From the NCBI GenBank assembly GCA_022770365.1, contig JALEHU010000127.1, forward strand, positions 1-38,369: a stretch of DNA of 38,369 nt, read 5' to 3'. Positions 9,205-22,173 of the stretch are shown here, piece by piece. The notes below the pieces were generated by a model. That model saw only the letters and a program-made list of their open reading frames with translations. It did not search any database and was not told the origin of the DNA. The translations under genes were made by a program, and so were the position numbers. The stretch comes from Blautia sp. Lineage in GTDB: Bacteria > Bacillota > Clostridia > Lachnospirales > Lachnospiraceae. Each line of letters starts with the position of its first letter. The stretch's first letter is position 1.

Positions 9205-10509
9205 ATGAAGTTAAGTAAATTAATGGCAGCCGGTATGGCAGCTCTGATGTGTTTTACATCATTTAATGCGATGAACGTATGGGCGGAGAATGAAGAAGAG
9301 GAGTCGTTGGTGATCAATTATATCAGCGCAAGAGGAGAGACAGATGCAGCGCTGAAGACTTTGAAGAAGCTTGCAGAGGATTATAAAGCGGATCATCCCG
9401 GATTTGAGTTCAATGTAGAATCTATTGCAGACCGTGCAACTTATTTACAGAAAATTAAAATCCTTGCATCCAGTGATGAATTACCGGATTGGTTTGATGC
9501 AGACCCGGAAGCGTTTTTTGAGGGACTTTGTAAAAAGGATCTGATTTACTGTGTAGATGATTTATATGAGGAGCTGGGAATTGAAAATCAGTTTTTTGAT
9601 ATTGCCCTTGACTATCCGAGATTTAGCGATGGAAGTAATTATCTGATGACATGGCAGGGCAATGTAGAATATTTCTGGTATCATAAAGATATGTTTGAAA
9701 AAGCAGGAATCACAGAGACTCCGAATACTCTGGACGAGCTGCTGGAAGTCTGCCAGAAACTTCAGGACGCAGGAATGACTCCTATCTCTGCCGGAAATTA
9801 TGACATGATCATGCGTTATCCTGCATTCAAAGCCTTCCGGCTTGCAGGAAATGATTTTATTGATAATGCCAGAATGGGAAAAGAAAAATTTGTTTCTGAC
9901 ACAGGTCTGGCTACTGCGGAATACGCACAGAATATTATGCAGTATTATAGTGAAGGCTGGACAAATTCGGATGCAACAGCACAGATGAGCCTTTTCTTAA
10001 GCAGCGGCGCCGCAATGCTTTATACAGGAACATGGGATACACCTGATCTGATAGATGAAAACGGCGAACTGAAGGAAGATATTTCCATGTTCCGTCTTCC
10101 TGTAGATACAGAAGGGACAGCTACAGGAGAAAATGATTATTATGCGAACTGTGGAATTGGTACAGCAGTCTTAAAAGAATCCATGACTCCTGCAATGAAG
10201 GAATTTATCAGTTATATCTGGGAAAACTATGCGGATACGGCAATGTATGAATTTAACATGCTTCCATCTATGATGCCAAGTAATCCTGAGAGTCTTCCTG
10301 AACTTACAAGACAGATTCTTACTGACCTGGAAAACTGCGGAACATTTGCACAGTGCTGGGATGTTCGTCTGGATCCTTCCACCAATGAGGTATATAGAAA
10401 AGAACTTGCAAGTCTTGGCATGAAGGAATCCACACCGGAAGAATTCTGCGAAAATATGGACAAGGCTGTAGAGCAATATGCAGCAGATTATTTTGAAACA
10501 GAGGAATAA
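9205..10509 (+). CDS. Carbohydrate ABC transporter, extracellular solute-binding protein
   Basis: A 434-residue family 1 solute-binding protein. The N-terminus is a signal peptide (K2 and K5, hydrophobic 6-24, then NVWA before ENEEEE). The mature part has the usual features: YISARGETDAALKTL, YLQKIKILASSDELPDWF, MTWQGNVEYFWYHKDMFEKAG and GMTPISAGNYD. A clear lipobox is missing: the only cysteine of the signal region is preceded by ALM, so cleavage by signal peptidase I after VWA is more likely than lipidation. AGGAGG precedes the ATG. It delivers an oligosaccharide to the two permeases that follow. The ligand is unknown; the GH2 enzyme at the operon end suggests a beta-linked sugar. Confidence 0.9.
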   Translation: MKLSKLMAAGMAALMCFTSFNAMNVWAENEEEESLVINYISARGETDAALKTLKKLAEDYKADHPGFEFNVESIADRATYLQKIKILASSDELPDWFDADPEAFFEGLCKKDLIYCVDDLYEELGIENQFFDIALDYPRFSDGSNYLMTWQGNVEYFWYHKDMFEKAGITETPNTLDELLEVCQKLQDAGMTPISAGNYDMIMRYPAFKAFRLAGNDFIDNARMGKEKFVSDTGLATAEYAQNIMQYYSEGWTNSDATAQMSLFLSSGAAMLYTGTWDTPDLIDENGELKEDISMFRLPVDTEGTATGENDYYANCGIGTAVLKESMTPAMKEFISYIWENYADTAMYEFNMLPSMMPSNPESLPELTRQILTDLENCGTFAQCWDVRLDPSTNEVYRKELASLGMKESTPEEFCENMDKAVEQYAADYFETEE

Positions 10510-10528
10510 AATCAATAAATCTATTTCG

Positions 10529-10564
10529 CCAGGAGCGGCGGCCAGATAAGCCGCTCCTGGTTTT
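10529..10564 (+). terminator. Intra-operon stem-loop after the solute-binding protein gene
   Basis: A perfect 11-bp stem, CCAGGAGCGGC (10529-10539) with GCCGCTCCTGG (10550-10560), has a 10-nt loop and is followed by TTTT. The ribosome binding site of the permease (AGGAGG) begins right after it. Such a structure typically terminates part of the transcripts or protects the upstream message, giving more binding protein than permease. Confidence 0.7.
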
Positions 10565-10581
10565 AGGAGGATATAAAAAAT

Positions 10582-11454
10582 ATGAAACCAAAAAACAAAA
10601 TACAGCCTTTGATGTTTATAGCTCCTGCCCTTTTGGTTTATATTGCAACCGTTATTATTCCTATTATCTGGTCTATGGGTTACAGCTTTTTTTCCTGGAA
10701 TGGTATTCGTGATATGAAATTTGTTGGTCTGGAAAATTACACCAGGATGTTTACGGATAAGACGTTTCTTGGTGCAGTAGTCAATAATTTCAAGTTTGTA
10801 CTGATGGGGAGCGCGTTTCAGTTGATTCTGGGACTTTTTCTTGCGATCCTTCTTACTCATATATCAAAGGGAAATAATGTTCTGAGGGTTATATATTTTA
10901 TTCCCTGTATTATTTCTTCTATGGCAATCTGTCAGATTTTTTCAAAAATGCTTTCAGCACAACCACAGGGATTAGTATGTTATCTGATGGAAAGAATGGG
11001 AATGGAGCCGATTGCTCTGCTTGCAAATTCAAAAACGGCATTGGTGACAATTACTTTGATAGATGGTTATAAATACTGCGGGTTATATATGATCATTTTT
11101 TATTCTGCTTTTGTATCCATATCAAAAGATGTGCTGGAAGCTTCCATTATGGACGGATGTAATATTCTGCAGCAGTATCGATATATTAAACTGCCTTTGA
11201 TAAAAAACATTTTCAGCATCGTAATCGTAATGCTGGTTAATGGATGTCTGAAAACATTTGATGTATTTTATATTCTGGACAATAAATCAAAATCAACAGA
11301 AATGGTTGCGACTTATATGTATAAAACAGCATTTAATTCAGTTGATTTTGGATACGGAAGTACGCTTGCTGTGTTTTTGGTAATAGAATGTCTTGTAGCA
11401 GTTGGAATTATTCAAAAAATCCTGGGCAGCGCGAAAGGGGATGAATCACAATGA
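10582..11454 (+). CDS. Carbohydrate ABC transporter permease, MalF-like (first permease)
   Basis: A 290-residue inner-membrane permease with six predicted membrane segments, starting with LMFIAPALLVYIATVIIPII. The cytoplasmic EAA loop that contacts the ATPase is visible as LEASIMDGCNILQQYRYIKL followed by PLIKN. AGGAGG lies upstream of the ATG at 10582. Its last codons overlap the next permease gene by 4 nt (ATGA), so the pair is translationally coupled. No ATP-binding subunit is encoded in the window; a multi-purpose MsmX-type ATPase elsewhere is the usual solution in Firmicutes. Confidence 0.92.
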   Translation: MKPKNKIQPLMFIAPALLVYIATVIIPIIWSMGYSFFSWNGIRDMKFVGLENYTRMFTDKTFLGAVVNNFKFVLMGSAFQLILGLFLAILLTHISKGNNVLRVIYFIPCIISSMAICQIFSKMLSAQPQGLVCYLMERMGMEPIALLANSKTALVTITLIDGYKYCGLYMIIFYSAFVSISKDVLEASIMDGCNILQQYRYIKLPLIKNIFSIVIVMLVNGCLKTFDVFYILDNKSKSTEMVATYMYKTAFNSVDFGYGSTLAVFLVIECLVAVGIIQKILGSAKGDESQ

Positions 11455-12293
11455 TACATTCGAGAAAAAACAAGGTAATCAGAATACTATTTTATGCAGT
11501 GATTCTGGTATTTATTCTTGTGCAGATCTATCCTATATTCTGGGTGATATGTTCCAGTCTGAAAACAGCGGATGAAATGATTTATACACCTCAATATTCA
11601 CTGCCGTCCGGAATTTATCTGGGGAACTATATCAGTGCACTGACGATTTCGGCGATTCCAAGATATTTTTTAAATAGTACGGTGGTAGCAATACTTACTT
11701 TGCTTGGAATTGTGATATTGGGATGCCCGGTGGCTTTTGTCATAAGCAAGGTAAGGATAAAGTACGCAAATGCACTTATGGGATTTTTTCTTTTTGGGAT
11801 GATGATTCCCATATTTTCATGTCTTGTACCCATGTTCCAGATTTATAATGCGTTAAAATTGAGGAATACCTATTGGGCATTGGTAATTCCTCAGGTCGGT
11901 TTTGGGCTTCCGATGTGTATTTATTTGTACACGGGCTTTTTTAAATTCCTACCGGATTCTTTGTTAGAAGCTGCTGTTATTGACGGGGCGGGAATGGGAA
12001 CCGTATTTGCCAGAATTGTGGTACCTATGGCAAAAAACACGACAATGACAGTTTTGACTTATAATTTTGTATTTGTATGGAATGAATTTACATATGCAAA
12101 TACATTCATATCGTCATCAGATATGAAAACACTGCCAATTGGTCTGAATGATTTTGTAGGACAGTTCGGGAGAGTTGACTGGGGAAGTACTTTTGCCGCC
12201 ATCGTTATTTCGATTCTGCCAACATTGGTGGTGTATTTTATTCTAAATAAAAATATCATAGAAGGTATGGCTGCTGGTGCAGTAAAAAGCTGA
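11451..12293 (+). CDS. Carbohydrate ABC transporter permease, MalG-like (second permease)
   Basis: A 280-residue permease of the MalG/CUT1 type, forming the heterodimeric channel with the preceding gene product. The N-terminal segment is followed by the family motif YPIFWVICSSLKTADEM. The EAA loop reads LEAAVIDGAGMGTVFARIVV followed by PMAKN, and the C-terminus ends with NKNIIEGMAAGAVKS, typical of the family. The start overlaps the upstream stop by 4 nt. The GH2 gene follows after 14 nt. Confidence 0.92.
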   Translation: MIHSRKNKVIRILFYAVILVFILVQIYPIFWVICSSLKTADEMIYTPQYSLPSGIYLGNYISALTISAIPRYFLNSTVVAILTLLGIVILGCPVAFVISKVRIKYANALMGFFLFGMMIPIFSCLVPMFQIYNALKLRNTYWALVIPQVGFGLPMCIYLYTGFFKFLPDSLLEAAVIDGAGMGTVFARIVVPMAKNTTMTVLTYNFVFVWNEFTYANTFISSSDMKTLPIGLNDFVGQFGRVDWGSTFAAIVISILPTLVVYFILNKNIIEGMAAGAVKS

Positions 12294-14514: not shown

Positions 14515-14555
14515 CAGGGGGCAGGTGTGACCATGGGAATCACACCTGCCTCCTG
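14515..14555 (+). terminator. Strong 16-bp hairpin after the GH2 gene
   Basis: Bases 14515-14530 pair with 14540-14555 (16 bp, one G-U pair) around a 9-nt loop, 38 nt after the GH2 stop. No long T-run follows (AAATTTATC), but the stability suggests transcription termination or a message 3' end. Its left arm carries GGGGGCAGGT, also found at 5536-5545. Confidence 0.6.
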
Positions 14556-14778: not shown

Positions 14779-15762
14779 ATGCCAATATTAGATCTGCCAG
14801 TGAAAGAACTGGAAAAGTACGAAGGAAGAAATCCAAAACCAGTCGATTTTGATGAATACTGGGAAAAAGCGATTGCTGAAATGAAAGCGGTTGATCCGCA
14901 GGTGACTTTACAGAAAGCTGTTTTTCAGACACCAACAGTGGAATGCTATGATATGTATTTCACAGGTGTGAATGGTGCGCGTATTTATGTGAAACATCTG
15001 CGGCCGAAAAATATTCAGGGAAAAATCCCGGCAGTTTTGAGATTTCATGGTTACAGCGGGGAAAGCGGTGACTGGTATGAAAAACTTGGATATGCCGCAT
15101 CCGGTATCGCGGTATTTGCCATGGACTGCCGCGGACAGGGCGGTAAGAGTGAGGATGCAGCAAATGTGAAAGGAACAACCTTCCATGGGCATATCGTCAG
15201 GGGACTTGCAGAGGATGATCCTCAGAAACTGATGTTCAGGGATATTTTTCTTGATACAGCGGAACTGGCGCGCATTGTTATGGATATGGACTTTGTGGAT
15301 GAAGCAAGAGTATATGCGGCAGGAGGAAGTCAGGGCGGCGCATTAACGATTGCATGTGCGTCACTGGAACCGCGAATTGCCAAAGCAGCACCGATATATC
15401 CGTTTCTCTGTGATTATAAGCGCGTGTGGGAAATGGATCTGGCAGTGAATGCATACGAAGAATTAAAAACCTATTTCCGTAATTATGACCCGAGACATGA
15501 AAGAGAAGATGAAATTTTTACAAAGCTTGGATATATTGATCTGCAGTATCTTGCTCCTCGCATAAAAGCGGATGTATGGATGTTTACAGGATTGATGGAT
15601 GATATTTGTCCGCCGTCCACACAGTATGCGGCATATAATAAGATGACTTGTAAAAAGAAACATATTTTGTATCCGGACTTTGGACATGAATGGCTGAAGG
15701 ATGCGGAGGATATTATTTTTGATTTTTTTGTGAACGGATGTACTGATTCTGTTGATTCTTAA
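14779..15762 (+). CDS. Acetyl xylan esterase / cephalosporin-C deacetylase family (CE7) esterase
   Basis: A 327-residue alpha/beta-hydrolase of the AXE1/CE7 family, which removes acetyl groups from short xylo- or other oligosaccharides in the cytoplasm. The catalytic triad is visible: S184 in GGSQGG, D274 in GLMDDICPPST and H303 in FGHEW. The family motif RGQGG (residues about 118-122) is present, and length fits (B. subtilis Cah is about 320). There is no signal peptide. AAAAGGAA lies upstream of the ATG. It is the first gene of the six-gene catabolic operon, implying that the imported substrate is acylated or that the enzyme cleaves another ester. A tandem duplication overlaps its stop codon. 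Confidence 0.9.
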   Translation: MPILDLPVKELEKYEGRNPKPVDFDEYWEKAIAEMKAVDPQVTLQKAVFQTPTVECYDMYFTGVNGARIYVKHLRPKNIQGKIPAVLRFHGYSGESGDWYEKLGYAASGIAVFAMDCRGQGGKSEDAANVKGTTFHGHIVRGLAEDDPQKLMFRDIFLDTAELARIVMDMDFVDEARVYAAGGSQGGALTIACASLEPRIAKAAPIYPFLCDYKRVWEMDLAVNAYEELKTYFRNYDPRHEREDEIFTKLGYIDLQYLAPRIKADVWMFTGLMDDICPPSTQYAAYNKMTCKKKHILYPDFGHEWLKDAEDIIFDFFVNGCTDSVDS

Positions 15763-15801
15763 AAATGAAATACTGATTCCGTTGACTCTTAAAAAATGAA
15801 A
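15741..15801. repeat. Imperfect 30-bp tandem duplication at the esterase stop codon
   Basis: Bases 15741-15770 and 15771-15801 are near-identical copies (three differences by eye, one an extra A). The first copy holds the last codons and TAA stop of the esterase; the second lies between that stop and the ribosome binding site of the dehydrogenase. It looks like replication slippage. Confidence 0.75.
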
Positions 15802-15819
15802 TATCAGGAGGTTGGAAGG

Positions 15820-16833
15820 ATGAAAGCGGTAAGAATCGAATCACCGGGAAATATCCATCTTGTTGAAGTGCCTGTGCCGGAACCGCCGAAAGGATTTGTG
15901 CGGGTAAAGGTCAAGGCGGCAGCCATCTGTGCCACGGATCTGGAAGTACTTGACGGCAGAATAGCCGCCAAGTATCCGCTGATTCCCGGTCATGAGTGGA
16001 GCGGTATCGTGGACAAGACAGGACCGGGTGTAGATGAATGCTGGCTGGGAGAGCGAGTGATCGGCAGTAATGATGTGGTATGTCTGACCTGTCCGGCCTG
16101 CCGCAGAGGAGAATGGCGCTACTGTAAAAGTTTTGAAGAGATTGGCTTTAAAAGAGACGGTGCCTATGCGGAATATGTGATCGTTCCGGCTTATGGTCTG
16201 TGCCGGATTCCGGAGCATATCCGTTTTGAGGAAGCAGCCCTGTGCGAACCTCTTGGCGTGGCTCTGGGAACCATGAAAAAATCCCATGCCAAGCTGGGTG
16301 ATACCTGCCTGATCATGGGCGCAGGTTCTATCGGACTGTGCACACTGGCGGTGGCGAAAGCCATGGGTCTGCGGGATGTGGTGGTGTGTGCTTCCAGCCG
16401 TAAAAGGGAAACACTTGCCAGGCGGCACGGAGCAGATCATTTTATTGCCGCATCGGAACAGGATCTGATGGAAGAGATGGCCAGAATCCATCCGGACGGT
16501 ACAGATGTGATTATTGATGCTACAGGCATGGAGGCATGTATACAGAAGGCGCTGAAGCTTTGTCGTAAAGGCGGTACAGTGGTGCTGGAAGGTTATGGCC
16601 GGGGAAAGACTATGCAGATCTGTATGGACGATATCCATATCAACAACCTGCATGTAATCGGCGCCGGCAACAACTGGAACATGCACCAGAAAGCCATGGA
16701 TCTGATCAGCAGCGGTGTTATCGATATACGTGATTTTGTATCTGAGAAGATAAGCCTGGAGGACTTTGAGAAAGGAATGGAACTGGTACGCAGCCGTCCC
16801 GAAGGTTTTGTGAAAGTGGAGTTCGTTCTATGA
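15820..16833 (+). CDS. Zinc-dependent medium-chain alcohol/polyol dehydrogenase
   Basis: A 337-residue member of the zinc medium-chain dehydrogenase family (sorbitol, threonine and galactitol dehydrogenase group). The catalytic zinc site is C37 (ICATD), H58 and E59 (GHEW). A structural zinc site is formed by C88, C91, C94 and C102. The Rossmann fingerprint is GAGSIG; after the second strand comes SSRKR rather than an acidic residue, which suggests NADP preference (inference). The start at 15820 is chosen for AGGAGG 8 nt upstream; the in-frame ATG at 15796 lies inside the tandem duplication. It overlaps the kinase gene by 4 nt. It probably oxidises a sugar, polyol or sugar-acid hydroxyl in the pathway of this operon. 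Confidence 0.9.
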   Translation: MKAVRIESPGNIHLVEVPVPEPPKGFVRVKVKAAAICATDLEVLDGRIAAKYPLIPGHEWSGIVDKTGPGVDECWLGERVIGSNDVVCLTCPACRRGEWRYCKSFEEIGFKRDGAYAEYVIVPAYGLCRIPEHIRFEEAALCEPLGVALGTMKKSHAKLGDTCLIMGAGSIGLCTLAVAKAMGLRDVVVCASSRKRETLARRHGADHFIAASEQDLMEEMARIHPDGTDVIIDATGMEACIQKALKLCRKGGTVVLEGYGRGKTMQICMDDIHINNLHVIGAGNNWNMHQKAMDLISSGVIDIRDFVSEKISLEDFEKGMELVRSRPEGFVKVEFVL

Positions 16834-18248
16834 TAGCGGGGATTGATCTGGGTACTTCTTCGGTCAAGATTATTTGCTCTGACGAAGGAAAAGTAACAGC
16901 CAGAGTCCAGGCTTGCTATCTTTCCGAAGCAGACATCCCTGTGACAGAACAATGGATCGAGGCAGTCTGCCGGGCTTTCCGGCAGCTGGAAAATGTGAGA
17001 GATAGAATCACATGCGTTGGTCTGTCTTCTCAGGTTGGTACCTATATTGTCAATGGAGAGCAGGTCGTATCCTGGCAGGAACCGGTGGGCAGAGAAGAAT
17101 TGGCAGAAGCCCGGAGAGCTTTTTCTGAAAAAACGTTTGAGGAAGAGATTTCCATGAACCATCCTGATATTCTGTCTTATCCGGTGCCCCGGATCCGCTG
17201 GCTGAAAAAACAGTACGGCAGGACACGGTCGATCATGTCGGTCTGCCAGCCAAAGGAATGGCTTCTTCATTTTCTGACCGGGAAAATGATCAGTGATCCC
17301 TGCTCCTGGAGGGGACTGGCAAATCAGGAAACGGCATGTTACAGCCGGAAAATGCTGGATTTTATCGGTATTGATCCGGATGTGCTGCCGCCGTTAAGTC
17401 TGCCCTGGAAGACAGCCGGAAAAGTCACGGGCAAAGCCGCGTCACTGACCGGACTGAAAGAGGGGGCGCCGGTATATCTCGGCTGCAACGACTATTACGC
17501 CTCCCTTCTCGGTATGGGCATTACCCGGCCGGGGCAGATGTTTGATGTGACCGGTACCAGCGAACATATCGGTGTGATCACAGAAACGCTGCAGACGGAC
17601 ACGAAGATGGTCAGTTCTCCCTATTTCCGGGGAAATGTTCTTTATGGAGTAACTGCTTCCAGCGGGGCTTCGCTGGATTATGGGATACGGCTGTTTGATC
17701 TGAAAAGCCTGAGTCCGGACGATTATAACAGGATTTTGGCGGGAATGTCTGCCGGGAAAGAACCTCCGCTGTTTCTGCCTTATCTTAATGGAGAACGTGC
17801 GCCGATTTTTGACGAACAGGCCAGAGGCGTATTTTTCGGCATATCCGGGGAGACAAGCCGGGAGGACATGGCGTATGCAGTACTGGAAGGTGTGGCTTTC
17901 AGCGTGCTGGATGTGTACCGTCATCTGAAACTTCCCTTTACGCCGGAAAAAATGATTATCTCCGGTGGGGCAGCTAAAAATCCGGTACTGAACCAGATCA
18001 AGGCTGATCTTCTCGGGATACCGGCAGTGACAGCAGGGGAACCGGATACCTCAGCCTATGGCGCCTGTATTCTGGCGGCGCTCGGCGAAGGGATGTACCC
18101 GGATATGGATACGGCAGTCAGCCGGATGTGTTGTTACGGATCATTGGTGACGCCACAGGAAGTACCGGTTCTGGAAAAAAGATTTGCGATTTACCGCGAC
18201 GTTTATCAGAGAATACGTCCGGTATTTCGGGGATTTATAAAGTTATAG
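16830..18248 (+). CDS. FGGY-family carbohydrate kinase
   Basis: A 472-residue sugar kinase with the actin-like fold. It has the N-terminal phosphate loop GIDLGTSSVK, the probable catalytic base D221 in CNDYYASLLGMG, the second phosphate loop VTGTSEH, and the adenosine motif ISGGAAKNPVLNQIKADLLG. The family phosphorylates pentuloses, polyols, glycerol or sugar acids; xylulokinase-like proteins are nearest by eye, but the substrate cannot be named. Translation is coupled to the dehydrogenase by an ATGA overlap, and the mannitol-dehydrogenase-like genes follow 18 nt later, so its product is presumably their phosphorylated substrate or derives from it. Confidence 0.9.
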   Translation: MIAGIDLGTSSVKIICSDEGKVTARVQACYLSEADIPVTEQWIEAVCRAFRQLENVRDRITCVGLSSQVGTYIVNGEQVVSWQEPVGREELAEARRAFSEKTFEEEISMNHPDILSYPVPRIRWLKKQYGRTRSIMSVCQPKEWLLHFLTGKMISDPCSWRGLANQETACYSRKMLDFIGIDPDVLPPLSLPWKTAGKVTGKAASLTGLKEGAPVYLGCNDYYASLLGMGITRPGQMFDVTGTSEHIGVITETLQTDTKMVSSPYFRGNVLYGVTASSGASLDYGIRLFDLKSLSPDDYNRILAGMSAGKEPPLFLPYLNGERAPIFDEQARGVFFGISGETSREDMAYAVLEGVAFSVLDVYRHLKLPFTPEKMIISGGAAKNPVLNQIKADLLGIPAVTAGEPDTSAYGACILAALGEGMYPDMDTAVSRMCCYGSLVTPQEVPVLEKRFAIYRDVYQRIRPVFRGFIKL

Positions 18249-18266
18249 AGTAAAGAGGAAAAAGAC

Positions 18267-19439
18267 ATGAGTTGTGTAATCTTTGGTGCCGGAAAAATTG
18301 CCAGAGGATTTATCGGGCATTTATTGTATCTGAGTAATATTCCCTTTGTATTTGTGGAAAAAGCAGACGGTCTGGCAGATCTTCTCAATGAAAAAGGAGA
18401 ATATACGGTCAATGTGCTGGGCAGCAGCGATAAAAACTGTGTGGTTAAGGGTGCAAAATGTCTGAAATACACGGAAAAGGAAAAAATCATGGACGCGATT
18501 GCAGAGGCAGACACCGTATTTAATGCAGTGGGCGGCAAAAATCTGCAGGAGATCGTTCCCTTTCTTACCGGAGGAATCGAAAGAAAAGCTCAAAGAGGCG
18601 GTAAAATTAACTTTATCACCTGCGAGAACTGGAAAAAACCGGCAGATATCCTGCGGGAAGGCATCGCCGCACAGATCAGTGAGGAAGCAAGAACCTACTT
18701 TGAAACGCAAGTGGGTATCACCGAAGCCGTTATTTTAAGAAGCGGCATTGATGCTACGGCACAGCAGAAAGAAAAGGATCCCCTCTGGGTCAATGTACAG
18801 GACTACTGGCAGCTCCATGTGGACGCTTCCCGCCTTGCGGGAACATTGCCGGATATTCTGGGACTGCATCTGATCGATGAATTCGGCGGATTCCTGGAGA
18901 GGAAATTTTATACATACAATGCTGCCAATGGTACTGCATCCTTTGCAGGCGCGCTGCTGGGTTACACGGTACTTTCGGATGCAGCCAATGACGAAAGGAT
19001 CGTAAAACTCCTGGAAGGCGTATATGCGGAGACATCGGCGGCGCTCTGTGAAAAATACGGATTTACCAAAGAGGATCAGTATGAATTTACCCGCGGTTCC
19101 CTGAACAAGCTTCAGAACCGGGTGATCGTGGATACGCTGGAGAGAAACGCCCGGGATCCCTTAAGAAAACTGGGACCGGATGACCGGCTGGTGGGGTCTG
19201 CCAGAATGGCAGAGTCTTTTGGCATTCGCCCGGAAGCTCTTGCTGTCGGTATTGCGGCGGCAATCTACTATACCAACGACGAAGATCCATCCGCTCTGGA
19301 GCTCCGCCGCATGCGGGAAGAAAAGGGCGTGGACTATGTGCTGGAGAACGTCTGCAAGCTGGATCCGAATGGGAATCTGGCAGGACTGATCCGGGAAAAA
19401 ACAGAGTATCTGAAGAAAGAAGGCTATATCCATGAGTGA
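18267..19439 (+). CDS. Mannitol-1-phosphate 5-dehydrogenase-like protein, paralogue 1
   Basis: A 390-residue polyol-specific long-chain dehydrogenase of the MtlD type. The N-terminal NAD fold has FGAGKIARGFIG; the C-terminal helical domain has ERKFYTYNAAN and VDTLERNARDPLRKLGPDDR, which match MtlD throughout. The family motif K-x4-N-x2-H is present as K213 and N218, but position 221 is Asn instead of the catalytic His. This suggests altered chemistry or substrate; true mannitol-1-phosphate oxidation is doubtful. It overlaps its paralogue by 8 nt. No PTS gene for mannitol is nearby, another reason not to call it mtlD. Confidence 0.85.
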   Translation: MSCVIFGAGKIARGFIGHLLYLSNIPFVFVEKADGLADLLNEKGEYTVNVLGSSDKNCVVKGAKCLKYTEKEKIMDAIAEADTVFNAVGGKNLQEIVPFLTGGIERKAQRGGKINFITCENWKKPADILREGIAAQISEEARTYFETQVGITEAVILRSGIDATAQQKEKDPLWVNVQDYWQLHVDASRLAGTLPDILGLHLIDEFGGFLERKFYTYNAANGTASFAGALLGYTVLSDAANDERIVKLLEGVYAETSAALCEKYGFTKEDQYEFTRGSLNKLQNRVIVDTLERNARDPLRKLGPDDRLVGSARMAESFGIRPEALAVGIAAAIYYTNDEDPSALELRRMREEKGVDYVLENVCKLDPNGNLAGLIREKTEYLKKEGYIHE

Positions 19440-20532
19440 GACAATCATTATCGGAGCCGGAAAGACAGGCCGTGGTTTTGTGGCAAGATTGCTGGCGGAG
19501 AAAAACATTCCTGTGACTTTTGTGGACAAAGACGAGATCCTGGTCAATCAGCTCAAGGATGCGGCAAAGAAAGATGGATTTACTGTCAGATTCTTTGGGG
19601 AAAAACGGACTCCCATGAAACTGACCGACTACGAGGCGGTAACCTGGGAAAAAGCTGATTTTACGGATGCAGAACTGATCTTTGTCTCTGTAGGCGGCAC
19701 TAATCTGGCAGATGTGGGAGCAGAATTACGAGGAAAACTGCCCTCAGATCACAAAGTGCATATCATTACCTGTGAAAATGCATCCGACCCGGCGGGGATT
19801 TTGAAAAAAGCCATTGACAGAGACAATGTGGCGGTTAGTCAGGCTACGGTATTCTGTACTACCACTGCGGAAAAAGGAGAACTGGATATCGCATCGGAAA
19901 ACTATCCTTATCTGCAGTTTGATGCAGACCTGCTGGAGGGCTATGTTCCAAAGGCAGATACAATCCGGCCGGTAAAAAACTTTGGCAATTTTCTGACCAG
20001 AAAGCTGTTTACCTACAATGCCGCCAGCGCTGTCATCGCCTATCTTGGATATATCTATGGCTTTACCGATTACAGTCAGGCAGCCAACAGCCCGGTGATT
20101 CAGGAACTGCTGGATCAGAATTATGCTGTGACCAACAAGGTGCTCTGCGAAGAATTCGGCTATGACCCGGAGGATCAGAAAGAATTTGCCCGGTTGTCCC
20201 GGGATAAATTTACCAGCAGGACCATCGTGGATACAGTGGAAAGAAATGCCAGAGAACCTCAGAGAAAGCTGGGACCAAAGGAGCGGATCATTGGTCCGTT
20301 ACAGCTGATTTACAATCACGGAGAGAACTGTCAGGTACTGGCTATGACAGCTGCTGCCGCGCTTCTGTATGACGGCGAGGGAGAGGATGTCTGGCGAGAG
20401 ATCCGGCGAACCCGTACACCGGAAGAAATACTGAAAGAAATCGGCGGTGTAAAAGAACAGCCGCTGATTGATCTGGTGATGGAACAATATCATAAATTTG
20501 CAAAGGCAAAAAATCCCCTTGCCGGAGAATGA
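19432..20532 (+). CDS. Mannitol-1-phosphate 5-dehydrogenase-like protein, paralogue 2
   Basis: A 366-residue homologue of the preceding protein, with IIGAGKTGRGFVARLL at the NAD site, IITCEN at residues 111-116, TRKLFTYNAAS in the catalytic helix and VDTVERNAREPQRKLGPKER near the C-terminus. The catalytic motif is K191-x4-N196-x2-S199, so the expected His is again absent, here Ser. The two paralogues are clearly diverged, so this is an old duplication rather than a recent one. Their 8-nt overlap suggests coordinated amounts, possibly a heteromer or two consecutive steps, which is inference. The UlaG-like gene follows after 39 nt. Confidence 0.85.
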   Translation: MSETIIIGAGKTGRGFVARLLAEKNIPVTFVDKDEILVNQLKDAAKKDGFTVRFFGEKRTPMKLTDYEAVTWEKADFTDAELIFVSVGGTNLADVGAELRGKLPSDHKVHIITCENASDPAGILKKAIDRDNVAVSQATVFCTTTAEKGELDIASENYPYLQFDADLLEGYVPKADTIRPVKNFGNFLTRKLFTYNAASAVIAYLGYIYGFTDYSQAANSPVIQELLDQNYAVTNKVLCEEFGYDPEDQKEFARLSRDKFTSRTIVDTVERNAREPQRKLGPKERIIGPLQLIYNHGENCQVLAMTAAAALLYDGEGEDVWREIRRTRTPEEILKEIGGVKEQPLIDLVMEQYHKFAKAKNPLAGE

Positions 20533-20571
20533 TCTCCGGTATGCGGAAAAATATAAAGGAGGAGAATATCT

Positions 20572-21405
20572 ATGGAAAGCGGATTGAAAGAAAAAATACT
20601 CGGCACAGAGCTTCTTCCCTCACAGGTGGTTCTGTTTTATCTGGGGCAGGTTGGCTTTATCCTGAAATATCAGGGAAAATATCTGATGATAGACGGATAT
20701 CTTTCTGATTATGTGGACAGAAACTGCAGCTCAGATCTGGTACAATGGAAACGCCTGTATCCATCCCCCATCCGGCCGGAAGAACTGGATTTTCTGGATT
20801 ATGTTTTTTGTACCCATACCCATTGTGACCATGCGGATCCCGACACATTGAAAGCAGTGGCTTCCTGCAGCCGGAAAGCTGTTTTTATGGGCTGCGCATC
20901 GGTGTGCGGCGCGCTGAAGGAATATGGTATCCCTGCGGACAGAATCTGCAAAATAAAGGCAGATGAGGAAATGCTTCTGGAGGAAAATATCCGCGTGACC
21001 GGTGTACCGGCGGCTCATGAAGAACTGCATCCCGACGGGGAAGGCGGCTATGAAGAAACAGGCGTATTGCTGACACTGGGAGAGAAAAGAATCTTTCATT
21101 CCGGAGACTGCTGTCCCTATGACGGGCTGGAACAGCGGATTCAGAACTGTGATGCGCTGATACTTCCTGTCAATGGAAGAGATTATTACCGCACCTGTAT
21201 CAAAAATATCATTGGCTGCTTCGACAGTGTGGAGGCAATAACGATTGCCAGGCATACCAATGCCGGACTGCTGATGCCGGTACACTGGGATCTGTACGAA
21301 GTTAATTCCGTTAATCCCGGAATCTTTGCAGATGCGATCCACAGACTGGAACCTTCACTGCCCTATCATATCTTTGTACCGGGAGAACGCTACATTCTGG
21401 CATAA
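20572..21405 (+). CDS. UlaG-like metallo-beta-lactamase-fold lactonase
   Basis: A 277-residue metallo-hydrolase. The metal-binding motif THTHCDHAD gives H82, H84, D86 and H87; H149, D179 (HSGD) and H238 (MPVHWD) complete the expected site. The layout resembles UlaG, the L-ascorbate-6-phosphate lactonase, more than typical beta-lactamases. AAAGGAGGAG precedes the ATG. As last gene of the operon it probably opens a lactone made by one of the dehydrogenases. A UlaF/AraD-type epimerase lies 1.6 kb downstream, so the pathway may end at a pentulose 5-phosphate; this is inference. Confidence 0.8.
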   Translation: MESGLKEKILGTELLPSQVVLFYLGQVGFILKYQGKYLMIDGYLSDYVDRNCSSDLVQWKRLYPSPIRPEELDFLDYVFCTHTHCDHADPDTLKAVASCSRKAVFMGCASVCGALKEYGIPADRICKIKADEEMLLEENIRVTGVPAAHEELHPDGEGGYEETGVLLTLGEKRIFHSGDCCPYDGLEQRIQNCDALILPVNGRDYYRTCIKNIIGCFDSVEAITIARHTNAGLLMPVHWDLYEVNSVNPGIFADAIHRLEPSLPYHIFVPGERYILA

Positions 21406-21512: not shown

Positions 21513-21797
21513 ATGATGAGTGCAGAAGAAGTAATAGGCAGGATCGCAGAAATCTGCAGGAAATATTCCGCATCACAGGTGATTCTGTTTGGCTCAAGAG
21601 CAAAAGGAACACAAACGGAGCGGAGTGATATTGATATCGCAGTTTCCGGAGTATATGATTTTGATTTGCTGGCTGAAGAGATAGAATCGATTCCGACTTT
21701 ATATACGATAGATTTGATTGAACTGGAAAATTGCAGAAATCAGTTGTTACTGGAGGATATCAGACAGTATGGACGAAAAATTTATGAAAAGGTTTGA
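21513..21797 (+). CDS. MntA-type nucleotidyltransferase (antitoxin of HepT/MntA pair)
   Basis: A 94-residue minimal nucleotidyltransferase. The signature G27-S28-x10-D39-x-D41 (GSRAKGTQTERSDID) is exactly the GSx10DxD motif of MNT proteins. In characterised HepT/MntA systems this enzyme AMPylates a tyrosine of the HEPN toxin and neutralises it. Two adjacent ATGs (21513, 21516) could start it. It overlaps the next gene by 29 nt, and that gene carries the matching HEPN motif, so a toxin-antitoxin role is likely. Older annotation would be HI0073-like nucleotidyltransferase. Confidence 0.85.
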   Translation: MMSAEEVIGRIAEICRKYSASQVILFGSRAKGTQTERSDIDIAVSGVYDFDLLAEEIESIPTLYTIDLIELENCRNQLLLEDIRQYGRKIYEKV

Positions 21798-22173
21798 GTC
21801 TTTTAAGAATTCATTGGATTCTCTTTCTGAGGCAAAGATGAGAGATCTGTCAGATTCTTTTGTTTTAAGCGGAACCAGTGCAAAATTCAGTATTACATTT
21901 GATCTGGCATGGAAAGTTATGAAGGATATTCTTGTACAGCACTATGCGATCATTGGATTTGTAGCCGGATCACCAAGAGAAGTATTGAAAGAATCTTTTA
22001 AAGTCGGCCTGATCTCTGATGATATATGGCTGGAAATGCTGAAGGTAAGAAATCAGCTGGCTCATGATTATGATGGAGTGATTGTGAAGGAATATTGTTC
22101 TGTGATTGTAAATGTATATATTGACAAATTTTATGAATTCAGAAAAATAGCCGAGGAATTAGTTTTACTTTGA
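21769..22173 (+). CDS. HepT-like HEPN protein (HI0074-type nucleotidyltransferase substrate-binding protein)
   Basis: A 134-residue all-alpha protein. R94-x4-H99-x-Y101 (RNQLAHDY) is the Rx4HxY motif of HEPN ribonuclease toxins whose tyrosine is the target of MntA. The segment SGTSAKFSITFDLAWKVMKD matches HI0074-family proteins. The start at 21769 (MDEKFMKRFESF) fits the family; the longer frame from 21718 would only add residues read out of frame through the antitoxin gene. GGAGG lies 12 nt upstream. It is translationally coupled to the nucleotidyltransferase. Toxicity itself is not shown by sequence. Confidence 0.82.
   Translation: MDEKFMKRFESFKNSLDSLSEAKMRDLSDSFVLSGTSAKFSITFDLAWKVMKDILVQHYAIIGFVAGSPREVLKESFKVGLISDDIWLEMLKVRNQLAHDYDGVIVKEYCSVIVNVYIDKFYEFRKIAEELVLL

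What the first reader, a model, noticed from the sequence alone, without database searches (positions are those of the whole stretch)
14779..21405. Unassigned six-gene catabolic operon: CE7 esterase, zinc dehydrogenase, FGGY kinase, two MtlD-like proteins, UlaG-like lactonase
The gaps are short (4-nt and 8-nt overlaps, 18- and 39-nt spacers), so the genes act together. The enzyme set does not match the mannitol, xylose, uronate, ascorbate or arabinose routes I know. A workable inference is deacylation, oxidation, phosphorylation, two further redox steps on a phosphorylated polyol or sugar acid, then lactone opening. A UlaF/AraD-type epimerase nearby hints at exit through a pentulose 5-phosphate. 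No transporter is inside the operon, so the ABC system at 9205-12293 may feed it.
Basis: partly seen in the sequence, partly recalled or inferred. Interest (0 to 1): 0.72.

Follow-up and report, generated by a model that had tools for sequence, protein, structure and literature searches.

The report
Conserved five-gene sugar-phosphate redox cassette
Five of the six genes form a rare but repeatedly conserved bacterial cassette that probably breaks down an unidentified small sugar or sugar alcohol by oxidising it, adding phosphate and then passing it through two unusual relatives of mannitol-phosphate dehydrogenase.

Summary
The six ORFs are real and the stated overlaps and spacers exact; the dehydrogenase more likely starts at 15820 than 15796. 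The conserved unit is five genes, not six: Zn-dehydrogenase, FGGY kinase, MtlD1, MtlD2 and a UlaG-fold hydrolase. The first four keep order and strand in 11 of 11 loci (window plus 10) where contigs show them; the hydrolase lies beside them, or one regulator gene away, in 9 of 12, the other three being cut by contig ends. CE7, GH2 and the ABC genes have no match in 17 stretches around other copies; AraD has one weak match. The core is rare: 7 of 64 genomes of its genus, 4 of 397 of its family (own genome counted), and only the own genome in order and phylum samples. MtlD1 and MtlD2 are separate clades. Both keep the catalytic triad and, one Arg-to-His apart, the phosphate pocket of mannitol-1-phosphate dehydrogenase, but a substrate-contact histidine is Asn in 12 of 12 MtlD1 and Ser in 12 of 12 MtlD2. 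They look like dehydrogenases of a phosphorylated substrate other than mannitol 1-phosphate. In two other genomes, probably three, the core sits inside an L-fucose-type island. Substrate and step order are inferred. Ten searches of one paper library found no description.

The parts
15820..16833 (+). Core gene 1: medium-chain Zn-dependent dehydrogenase (threonine / sorbitol / RspB-like), conserved start at 15820
   Evidence: ADH_N + ADH_zinc_N; 63-81% identity to nine relatives, with C37, H58, E59, E143 and C88, C91, C94, C102 invariant (zinc-site roles recalled); RBS before 15820
16830..18248 (+). Core gene 2: FGGY carbohydrate kinase of a distinct subfamily (XylB-like, below the xylulokinase cut-off)
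   Evidence: FGGY_N/C; TIGR01312 207 bits against 380.25; 42-53% identity to nine relatives; 4-nt overlap with gene 1
18267..19439 (+). Core gene 3: MtlD1, mannitol-1-phosphate-dehydrogenase-like; triad and phosphate pocket kept, substrate-contact His replaced by Asn
19432..20532 (+). Core gene 4: MtlD2, second, more divergent MtlD-like dehydrogenase; the same His replaced by Ser
   Evidence: AF2 model pLDDT 91.4, best PDB matches S. aureus and Shigella MtlD
20572..21405 (+). Core gene 5: UlaG-fold metallo-beta-lactamase hydrolase with a complete metal-ligand set
   Evidence: Lactamase_B_2; H82, H84, D86, H87, H149, D179, H238 invariant in eight sequences (ligand pattern recalled); AF2 model pLDDT 86, best Foldseek matches 2wyl/3bv6/2wym
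14779..15762 (+). CE7 acetyl esterase; same strand, 57 nt upstream of gene 1; local companion, not part of the conserved core
   Evidence: AXE1 423.5 bits; no match in 17 fetched stretches around other copies of the core
14515..14555 (+). Inverted repeat (16-nt arms) between GH2 and CE7, possible boundary between the two operons
   Evidence: not listed by the terminator scan, which showed no clear excess over shuffles

Best explanation
The core is a portable catabolic cassette for one small sugar, polyol or sugar acid. The Zn-dehydrogenase oxidises a free hydroxyl, the FGGY kinase phosphorylates the product, and MtlD1 and MtlD2 then act in series on the phosphorylated compound: one reduces the carbonyl, the other re-oxidises at another position or with other stereochemistry. 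The net effect would be a nearly redox-neutral carbonyl relocation or epimerisation into a sugar phosphate that ordinary metabolism can use, the same logic as L-sorbose-1-phosphate reductase plus glucitol-6-phosphate dehydrogenase (recalled). The UlaG-fold hydrolase opens a lactone formed on the way or removes a side product. Shown: gene set, order, conservation, catalytic and phosphate-pocket residues, predicted folds of two of the five. Inferred: step order, direction, the relay, the role of the hydrolase, the substrate.
For: Four-gene order in 11 of 11 loci that show it; hydrolase beside the core or one ROK gene away in 9 of 12, the other three cut by contig ends. In 12 of 12 loci MtlD1 and MtlD2 stand side by side. 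MtlD1 (12), MtlD2 (12) and ordinary MtlD (13) are three separate groups in a tree. SaM1PDH triad N119/K200/N205 and substrate-side R280 and K288 kept in 11 of 11 MtlD1 and 10 of 10 MtlD2; phosphate-pocket R287 and R294 kept in all 21, R283 in 20 of 21 (residue roles from passages of PMC6623548; positions mapped by reading the alignments). H208 is Asn in 12 of 12 MtlD1 and Ser in 12 of 12 MtlD2, while 13 of 13 ordinary MtlD keep His. In a family sample the kinase subfamily turned up in 2 of 250 genomes, both with the core; the third core genome there, G163, has its contig cut at that point. Metal ligands of the hydrolase invariant in 8 sequences, UlaG fold. ROK regulator near the core in 6 of 12 loci. 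In G273 and G1031 the core lies between an aldo-keto reductase and a ribose-type CUT2 importer.
Against: No substrate, activity or expression data. The two MtlD proteins could be subunits of one enzyme. A redox relay gives no obvious task to a hydrolase; a lactone route gives it one. Importers were recognised at only 4 of 12 loci. The fucose-type island is not tied to the core: its AKR occurs in 37 of 57 genus genomes without the core (7 of 7 with it; Fisher p = 0.088).
Confidence: 0.5

Rival explanations
1. Aldonate route: the Zn-dehydrogenase oxidises C1 of a rare aldose to a lactone, the UlaG-fold enzyme opens it, FGGY phosphorylates the aldonate, and the two MtlD-like enzymes (whose wider family includes hexuronate reductases) epimerise the phospho-aldonate through a keto acid towards 6-phosphogluconate.
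For: Gives every gene a task. Pfam's glucose-dehydrogenase C-terminal domain also hits the dehydrogenase; the best solved kinase by sequence is a gluconate kinase (3gbt); fructuronate reductase 4im7 is among the MtlD2 fold matches; the changed H208 position could accommodate a carboxylate (inference).
Against: The 3gbt match is weak evidence (129.7 bits), and the gluconokinase model scores far below its cut-off (113.9 against 648.55). I did not look for an extra basic residue for a carboxylate in a structure.
Confidence: 0.25
2. MtlD1 and MtlD2 are two subunits of one heteromeric dehydrogenase, so there is only one phosphorylated redox step.
For: Side by side in 12 of 12 loci; 8-nt overlap in 6 of 12.
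Against: Each keeps its own Rossmann motif, triad and pocket and a different residue at position 208. Oligomeric state was not tested.
Confidence: 0.12
3. Ordinary mannitol, xylulose and ascorbate genes gathered by chance.
For: All Pfam names are ordinary.
Against: No core protein reaches an NCBIfam cut-off; His208 replaced in both MtlD lineages; the four-gene order recurs in 11 loci.
Confidence: 0.05

Closest known systems
Mannitol-1-phosphate 5-dehydrogenase (MtlD / M1PDH)
   Same: Fold of MtlD2, catalytic triad and phosphate-binding arginines of both
   Different: Two paralogues in tandem; substrate-contact His replaced by Asn or Ser; scores below all NCBIfam MtlD cut-offs listed; no PTS family among the flanking proteins that were scanned (not all were scanned)
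L-sorbose-1-phosphate reductase + glucitol-6-phosphate dehydrogenase (pathway recalled; only the names, and the reductase's place in the MDR/PDH family, were seen in passages of PMC11519228)
   Same: Would be the same logic: reduce a ketose phosphate, re-oxidise the alditol phosphate elsewhere
   Different: Other enzyme families (the second is an SDR, recalled), and substrate entry by PTS instead of an FGGY kinase (recalled)
UlaG L-ascorbate-6-phosphate lactonase
   Same: Fold and metal ligands
   Different: About 19% identity; 277 residues against a 355-position model; 41.9 bits against a cut-off of 306
Thermotoga inositol route IolM / IolN (recalled; the paper search found nothing)
   Same: A TDH-like Zn-dehydrogenase paired with a metallo-beta-lactamase hydrolase (recalled); the IolM model hits the dehydrogenase at 169.2 bits
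   Different: Below the 450-bit cut-off; no kinase or MtlD pair in that route (recalled); IolN itself was not compared

Membership tests
Mannitol-1-phosphate 5-dehydrogenase | Catalytic triad Asn-Lys-Asn | tested here: met
   11 of 11 MtlD1, 10 of 10 MtlD2 (residues from passages of PMC6623548)
Mannitol-1-phosphate 5-dehydrogenase | Three-arginine phosphate pocket (R283, R287, R294) | tested here: met
   R287 and R294 in 21 of 21, R283 in 20 of 21 (His in L021 MtlD2; not in the window)
Mannitol-1-phosphate 5-dehydrogenase | Substrate-contact His208 | tested here: not met
   Asn in 12 of 12 MtlD1, Ser in 12 of 12 MtlD2; His in 13 of 13 ordinary MtlD
Mannitol-1-phosphate 5-dehydrogenase | NCBIfam equivalog cut-off | tested here: not met
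   Best model NF002652: 275 (MtlD1) and 140.8 (MtlD2) against 356 bits
UlaG L-ascorbate-6-phosphate lactonase | UlaG-type MBL fold with full metal-ligand set | tested here: met
   (ligand pattern recalled; other MBL enzymes such as NAPE-PLD follow in the same list)
UlaG L-ascorbate-6-phosphate lactonase | NCBIfam equivalog cut-off | tested here: not met
   41.9 against 306 bits
UlaG L-ascorbate-6-phosphate lactonase | Lactonase activity | not testable with these tools
   Needs enzyme assay
Xylulokinase XylB | TIGR01312 cut-off | tested here: not met
   207 against 380.25 bits
CE7 acetyl xylan esterase / cephalosporin-C deacetylase | AXE1 domain | tested here: met
   423.5 against 21 bits; substrate not testable here
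Thermotoga-type inositol ring cleavage (IolM/IolN) | IolM equivalog cut-off | tested here: not met
   169.2 against 450 bits
Thermotoga-type inositol ring cleavage (IolM/IolN) | Hydrolase orthologous to IolN | not tested
   No IolN sequence was compared

The most novel reading that the evidence does not exclude
A previously undescribed catabolic pathway in which two new MtlD subfamilies form a redox-neutral relay that moves the carbonyl, or inverts a centre, of a rare sugar phosphate, letting these Lachnospiraceae-type bacteria feed an unusual (possibly galacto- or fuco-configured) sugar or polyol into glycolysis.
Probability: 0.35. Interest if true: 0.68.

Novelty: new variant of a known kind. 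Interest (0 to 1): 0.5.

Why it matters
Family names suggest mannitol, xylulose and ascorbate metabolism, and residue evidence says at least the mannitol label is misleading. If the relay is real it is a new way of salvaging sugars and adds two assignable enzyme subfamilies with a clear residue signature (N-x2-N and N-x2-S in place of N-x2-H). The patchy distribution (7 of 64 genomes of one genus) would mark a niche substrate.

Tried and rejected
A six-gene unit including CE7: rejected, no match near other copies. Feeding by the 9205-12293 ABC system and GH2, and exit by AraD: no match, and for AraD one weak match, at other loci. Importer in L032: the two-ABC-domain protein aligns only 22-24% with the ribose-type ATPase of L034 and reads as an ABC-F-like protein (recalled). 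PfkB, GatD-like dehydrogenase, aldolase and AKR as obligatory downstream steps: they belong to a fucose-type island whose AKR also occurs in 37 of 57 core-less genus genomes (only the AKR was searched); co-occurrence 7 of 7, p = 0.088. UlaG-like genes of seven family genomes without the core (G002, G028, G043, G058, G075, G162, G247): no MtlD, kinase or dehydrogenase match within the fetched stretches, G075 being only 4.4 kb. Promoter and terminator scan: no clear excess over shuffles (11 against 9.1, sd 3.4; 9 against 6.4, sd 2.5). Hits G455 and G634 at E below 1e-50 are ordinary MtlD with the His motif. Ten paper searches listed no paper recognisable as describing this gene set; most subscription papers are not in that library. 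PMC6623548, PMC11519228 and PMC5583593 were seen as passages and abstract starts only.

Limits: L021 and L036 end within 151 bases of MtlD2, and L023 ends just past MtlD1, so the hydrolase could not be judged there. L033 MtlD2 is in frame with an S66 peptidase; it is missing from the residue table, as are the two L066 proteins, and was cut to 345 residues for the tree. Letters X were dropped from ordinary MtlD sequences. In one search some starts (L022 FGGY, L034 MtlD2, L066 FGGY and ADH) were set by eye, so those gap lengths are not exact. ROK in L022, L032 and L066 rests on similarity to Pfam-scanned ROK of L033 or to each other. The microcompartment reading of L067 is from ORF starts and one family scan. 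Genome samples overlap, so counts must not be added.
Full report
OBSERVATION. The six ORFs, their strand and the short gaps are as described. The dehydrogenase start should be moved to 15820: six of nine aligned relatives have their first possible start there and the other three have Met or Val at that position, and AGGAGG lies eight bases before it. The CE7 to dehydrogenase gap is then 57 nt and holds the second unit of a 30-nt-spaced tandem duplication whose first unit covers the CE7 stop codon. A 16-nt inverted repeat at 14515-14555 lies between GH2 and CE7.

CONSERVATION. An MtlD2 orthologue was found in 7 of 64 genomes of the window's genus, the own genome included. In a first family sample 12 of 250 genomes passed E 1e-20, but only 3 (own, G163, G225) at 53% identity or more; the other nine hold ordinary MtlD at 26-30%. 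A second family sample gave 4 of 397 (adding G1031). In the order sample (295) only the own genome passed E 1e-50; in the phylum sample (398) three did, two of them ordinary MtlD. A scan of genome contigs gave 2 more loci. Neighbourhoods were read for the window and 11 other loci (L020, L021, L022, L023, L032, L033, L034, L035, L036, L037, L066). ADH-FGGY-MtlD1-MtlD2 keep order and strand in 11 of 11; L023 is cut by its contig end after MtlD1. The UlaG-type gene is found with them in 9 of 12: downstream on the same strand (window, L035, L037), or divergent on the other side of ADH (L022, L032, L033, L066; in L020 and L034 with the ROK gene between). The remaining three are cut by contig ends; in the genome of L023 (G163) the UlaG gene lies at the edge of another contig. 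A ROK regulator sits beside the core, or just beyond the UlaG gene (in L066 with one more gene between), in 6 of 12. In the first family sample the kinase subfamily was found in 2 of 250 genomes, both with the core. CE7, GH2 and the ABC genes have no tblastn match at E 1e-10 in 17 fetched stretches; AraD has one at 30% in L067, in a gene of the class II aldolase family.

THE TWO MtlD PROTEINS. A tree of 12 MtlD1, 12 MtlD2 and 13 ordinary MtlD puts each group on one side of one branch (support 99/98, 100/100 and 100/99). Long branches were flagged, so the deeper order is unsure. Read against passages on S. aureus M1PDH (PMC6623548; positions mapped through the alignments), the triad N119-K200-N205 and substrate-side R280 and K288 are kept in 11 of 11 MtlD1 and 10 of 10 MtlD2; of the phosphate pocket, R287 and R294 are kept in all 21 and R283 in 20. 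Position H208, which that paper superimposes on a mannitol-binding His, is Asn in 12 of 12 MtlD1 and Ser in 12 of 12 MtlD2, while 13 of 13 ordinary MtlD keep His. The MtlD2 model (pLDDT 91.4) matches MtlD structures best (5jnm, E 1.2e-27, TM 0.83). So both are probably working dehydrogenases of a phosphorylated substrate that is not mannitol 1-phosphate.

THE OTHER CORE PROTEINS. The kinase is XylB-like but far below the xylulokinase cut-off, with D6 and D221 invariant in ten sequences (roles recalled). The dehydrogenase is nearest to threonine dehydrogenase and related enzymes, RspB and sorbitol dehydrogenase among them. The hydrolase keeps the expected metal ligands, and its model (pLDDT 86) matches E. 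coli UlaG best (TM 0.80, about 19% identity); the same list includes NAPE-PLD, isothiocyanate hydrolase and others, so fold alone does not prove a lactonase.

WIDER CONTEXT. In G273 (window's genus) and G1031 (another genus) the core lies between an aldo-keto reductase and a ribose-type CUT2 importer, within an island that carries an L-fucose-mutarotase-like gene (125.7 bits, cut-off 141, scanned in G1031), a rhamnulokinase-like kinase (above its cut-off in G273, below it in G1031), a ketose-bisphosphate aldolase, a second FGGY kinase (XylB-type, just above cut-off in G1031), a GatD-like dehydrogenase (312-313 bits, cut-off 550) and a 1-phosphofructokinase-type PfkB (above cut-off); L-fucose isomerase was seen in G1031 but not in the stretch read of G273. 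G163 fits the same layout, split over two contigs and without fucose genes in view. The own genome has that island on another contig, without the core: the AKR and the response regulator are 246 bp apart, where G273 has 8.7 kb holding the core. The core thus behaves as a movable cassette. All 7 genus genomes with the core have the AKR, but so do 37 of 57 without it (p = 0.088), so a shared pathway is only suggested.

MECHANISM. Most likely: oxidation, phosphorylation, then a two-enzyme relay on the phosphorylated compound, with the hydrolase opening a lactone or clearing a by-product. The main rival is an aldonate route in which the hydrolase acts early. Neither substrate nor order is shown.

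VERDICT. This is a new variant of a known kind, worth an enzyme screen.

Noticed in passing
window 21513-22173: MntA-like nucleotidyltransferase (49.6 bits, below its 60-bit cut-off) and an HI0074-family partner (88.6, above 55.8): an MNT/HEPN toxin-antitoxin-like pair directly after the operon.
   Followed up: partly
window 15741-15803: Tandem duplication (spacing 30 nt) across the CE7 stop codon.
   Followed up: no
L033 7955-9934: MtlD2 in one frame with an S66 LD-carboxypeptidase (660 codons).
   Followed up: no
L034 3472-12144 versus L073 11897-12144: Presence/absence of the core inside an otherwise similar fucose-type island in two genomes of one genus.
   Followed up: yes
L073 1195-2988: L-fucose isomerase is split into two ORFs in the window's own genome; may be an assembly error.
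   Followed up: no
L021 3383-4447 and L036 5623-6663: A DUF362 protein lies just before the core in two loci.
   Followed up: no
L050 1-2808: A 42%-identical UlaG-like gene beside a protein resembling aceric acid hydrolase (395.7 bits, cut-off 950), hinting at pectin-type substrates for the wider hydrolase family.
   Followed up: no
L067 4417-17658: DeoR-like regulator, apparent microcompartment shell genes and a glycyl-radical-type enzyme next to the island in G1031, read mostly from ORF starts.
   Followed up: no
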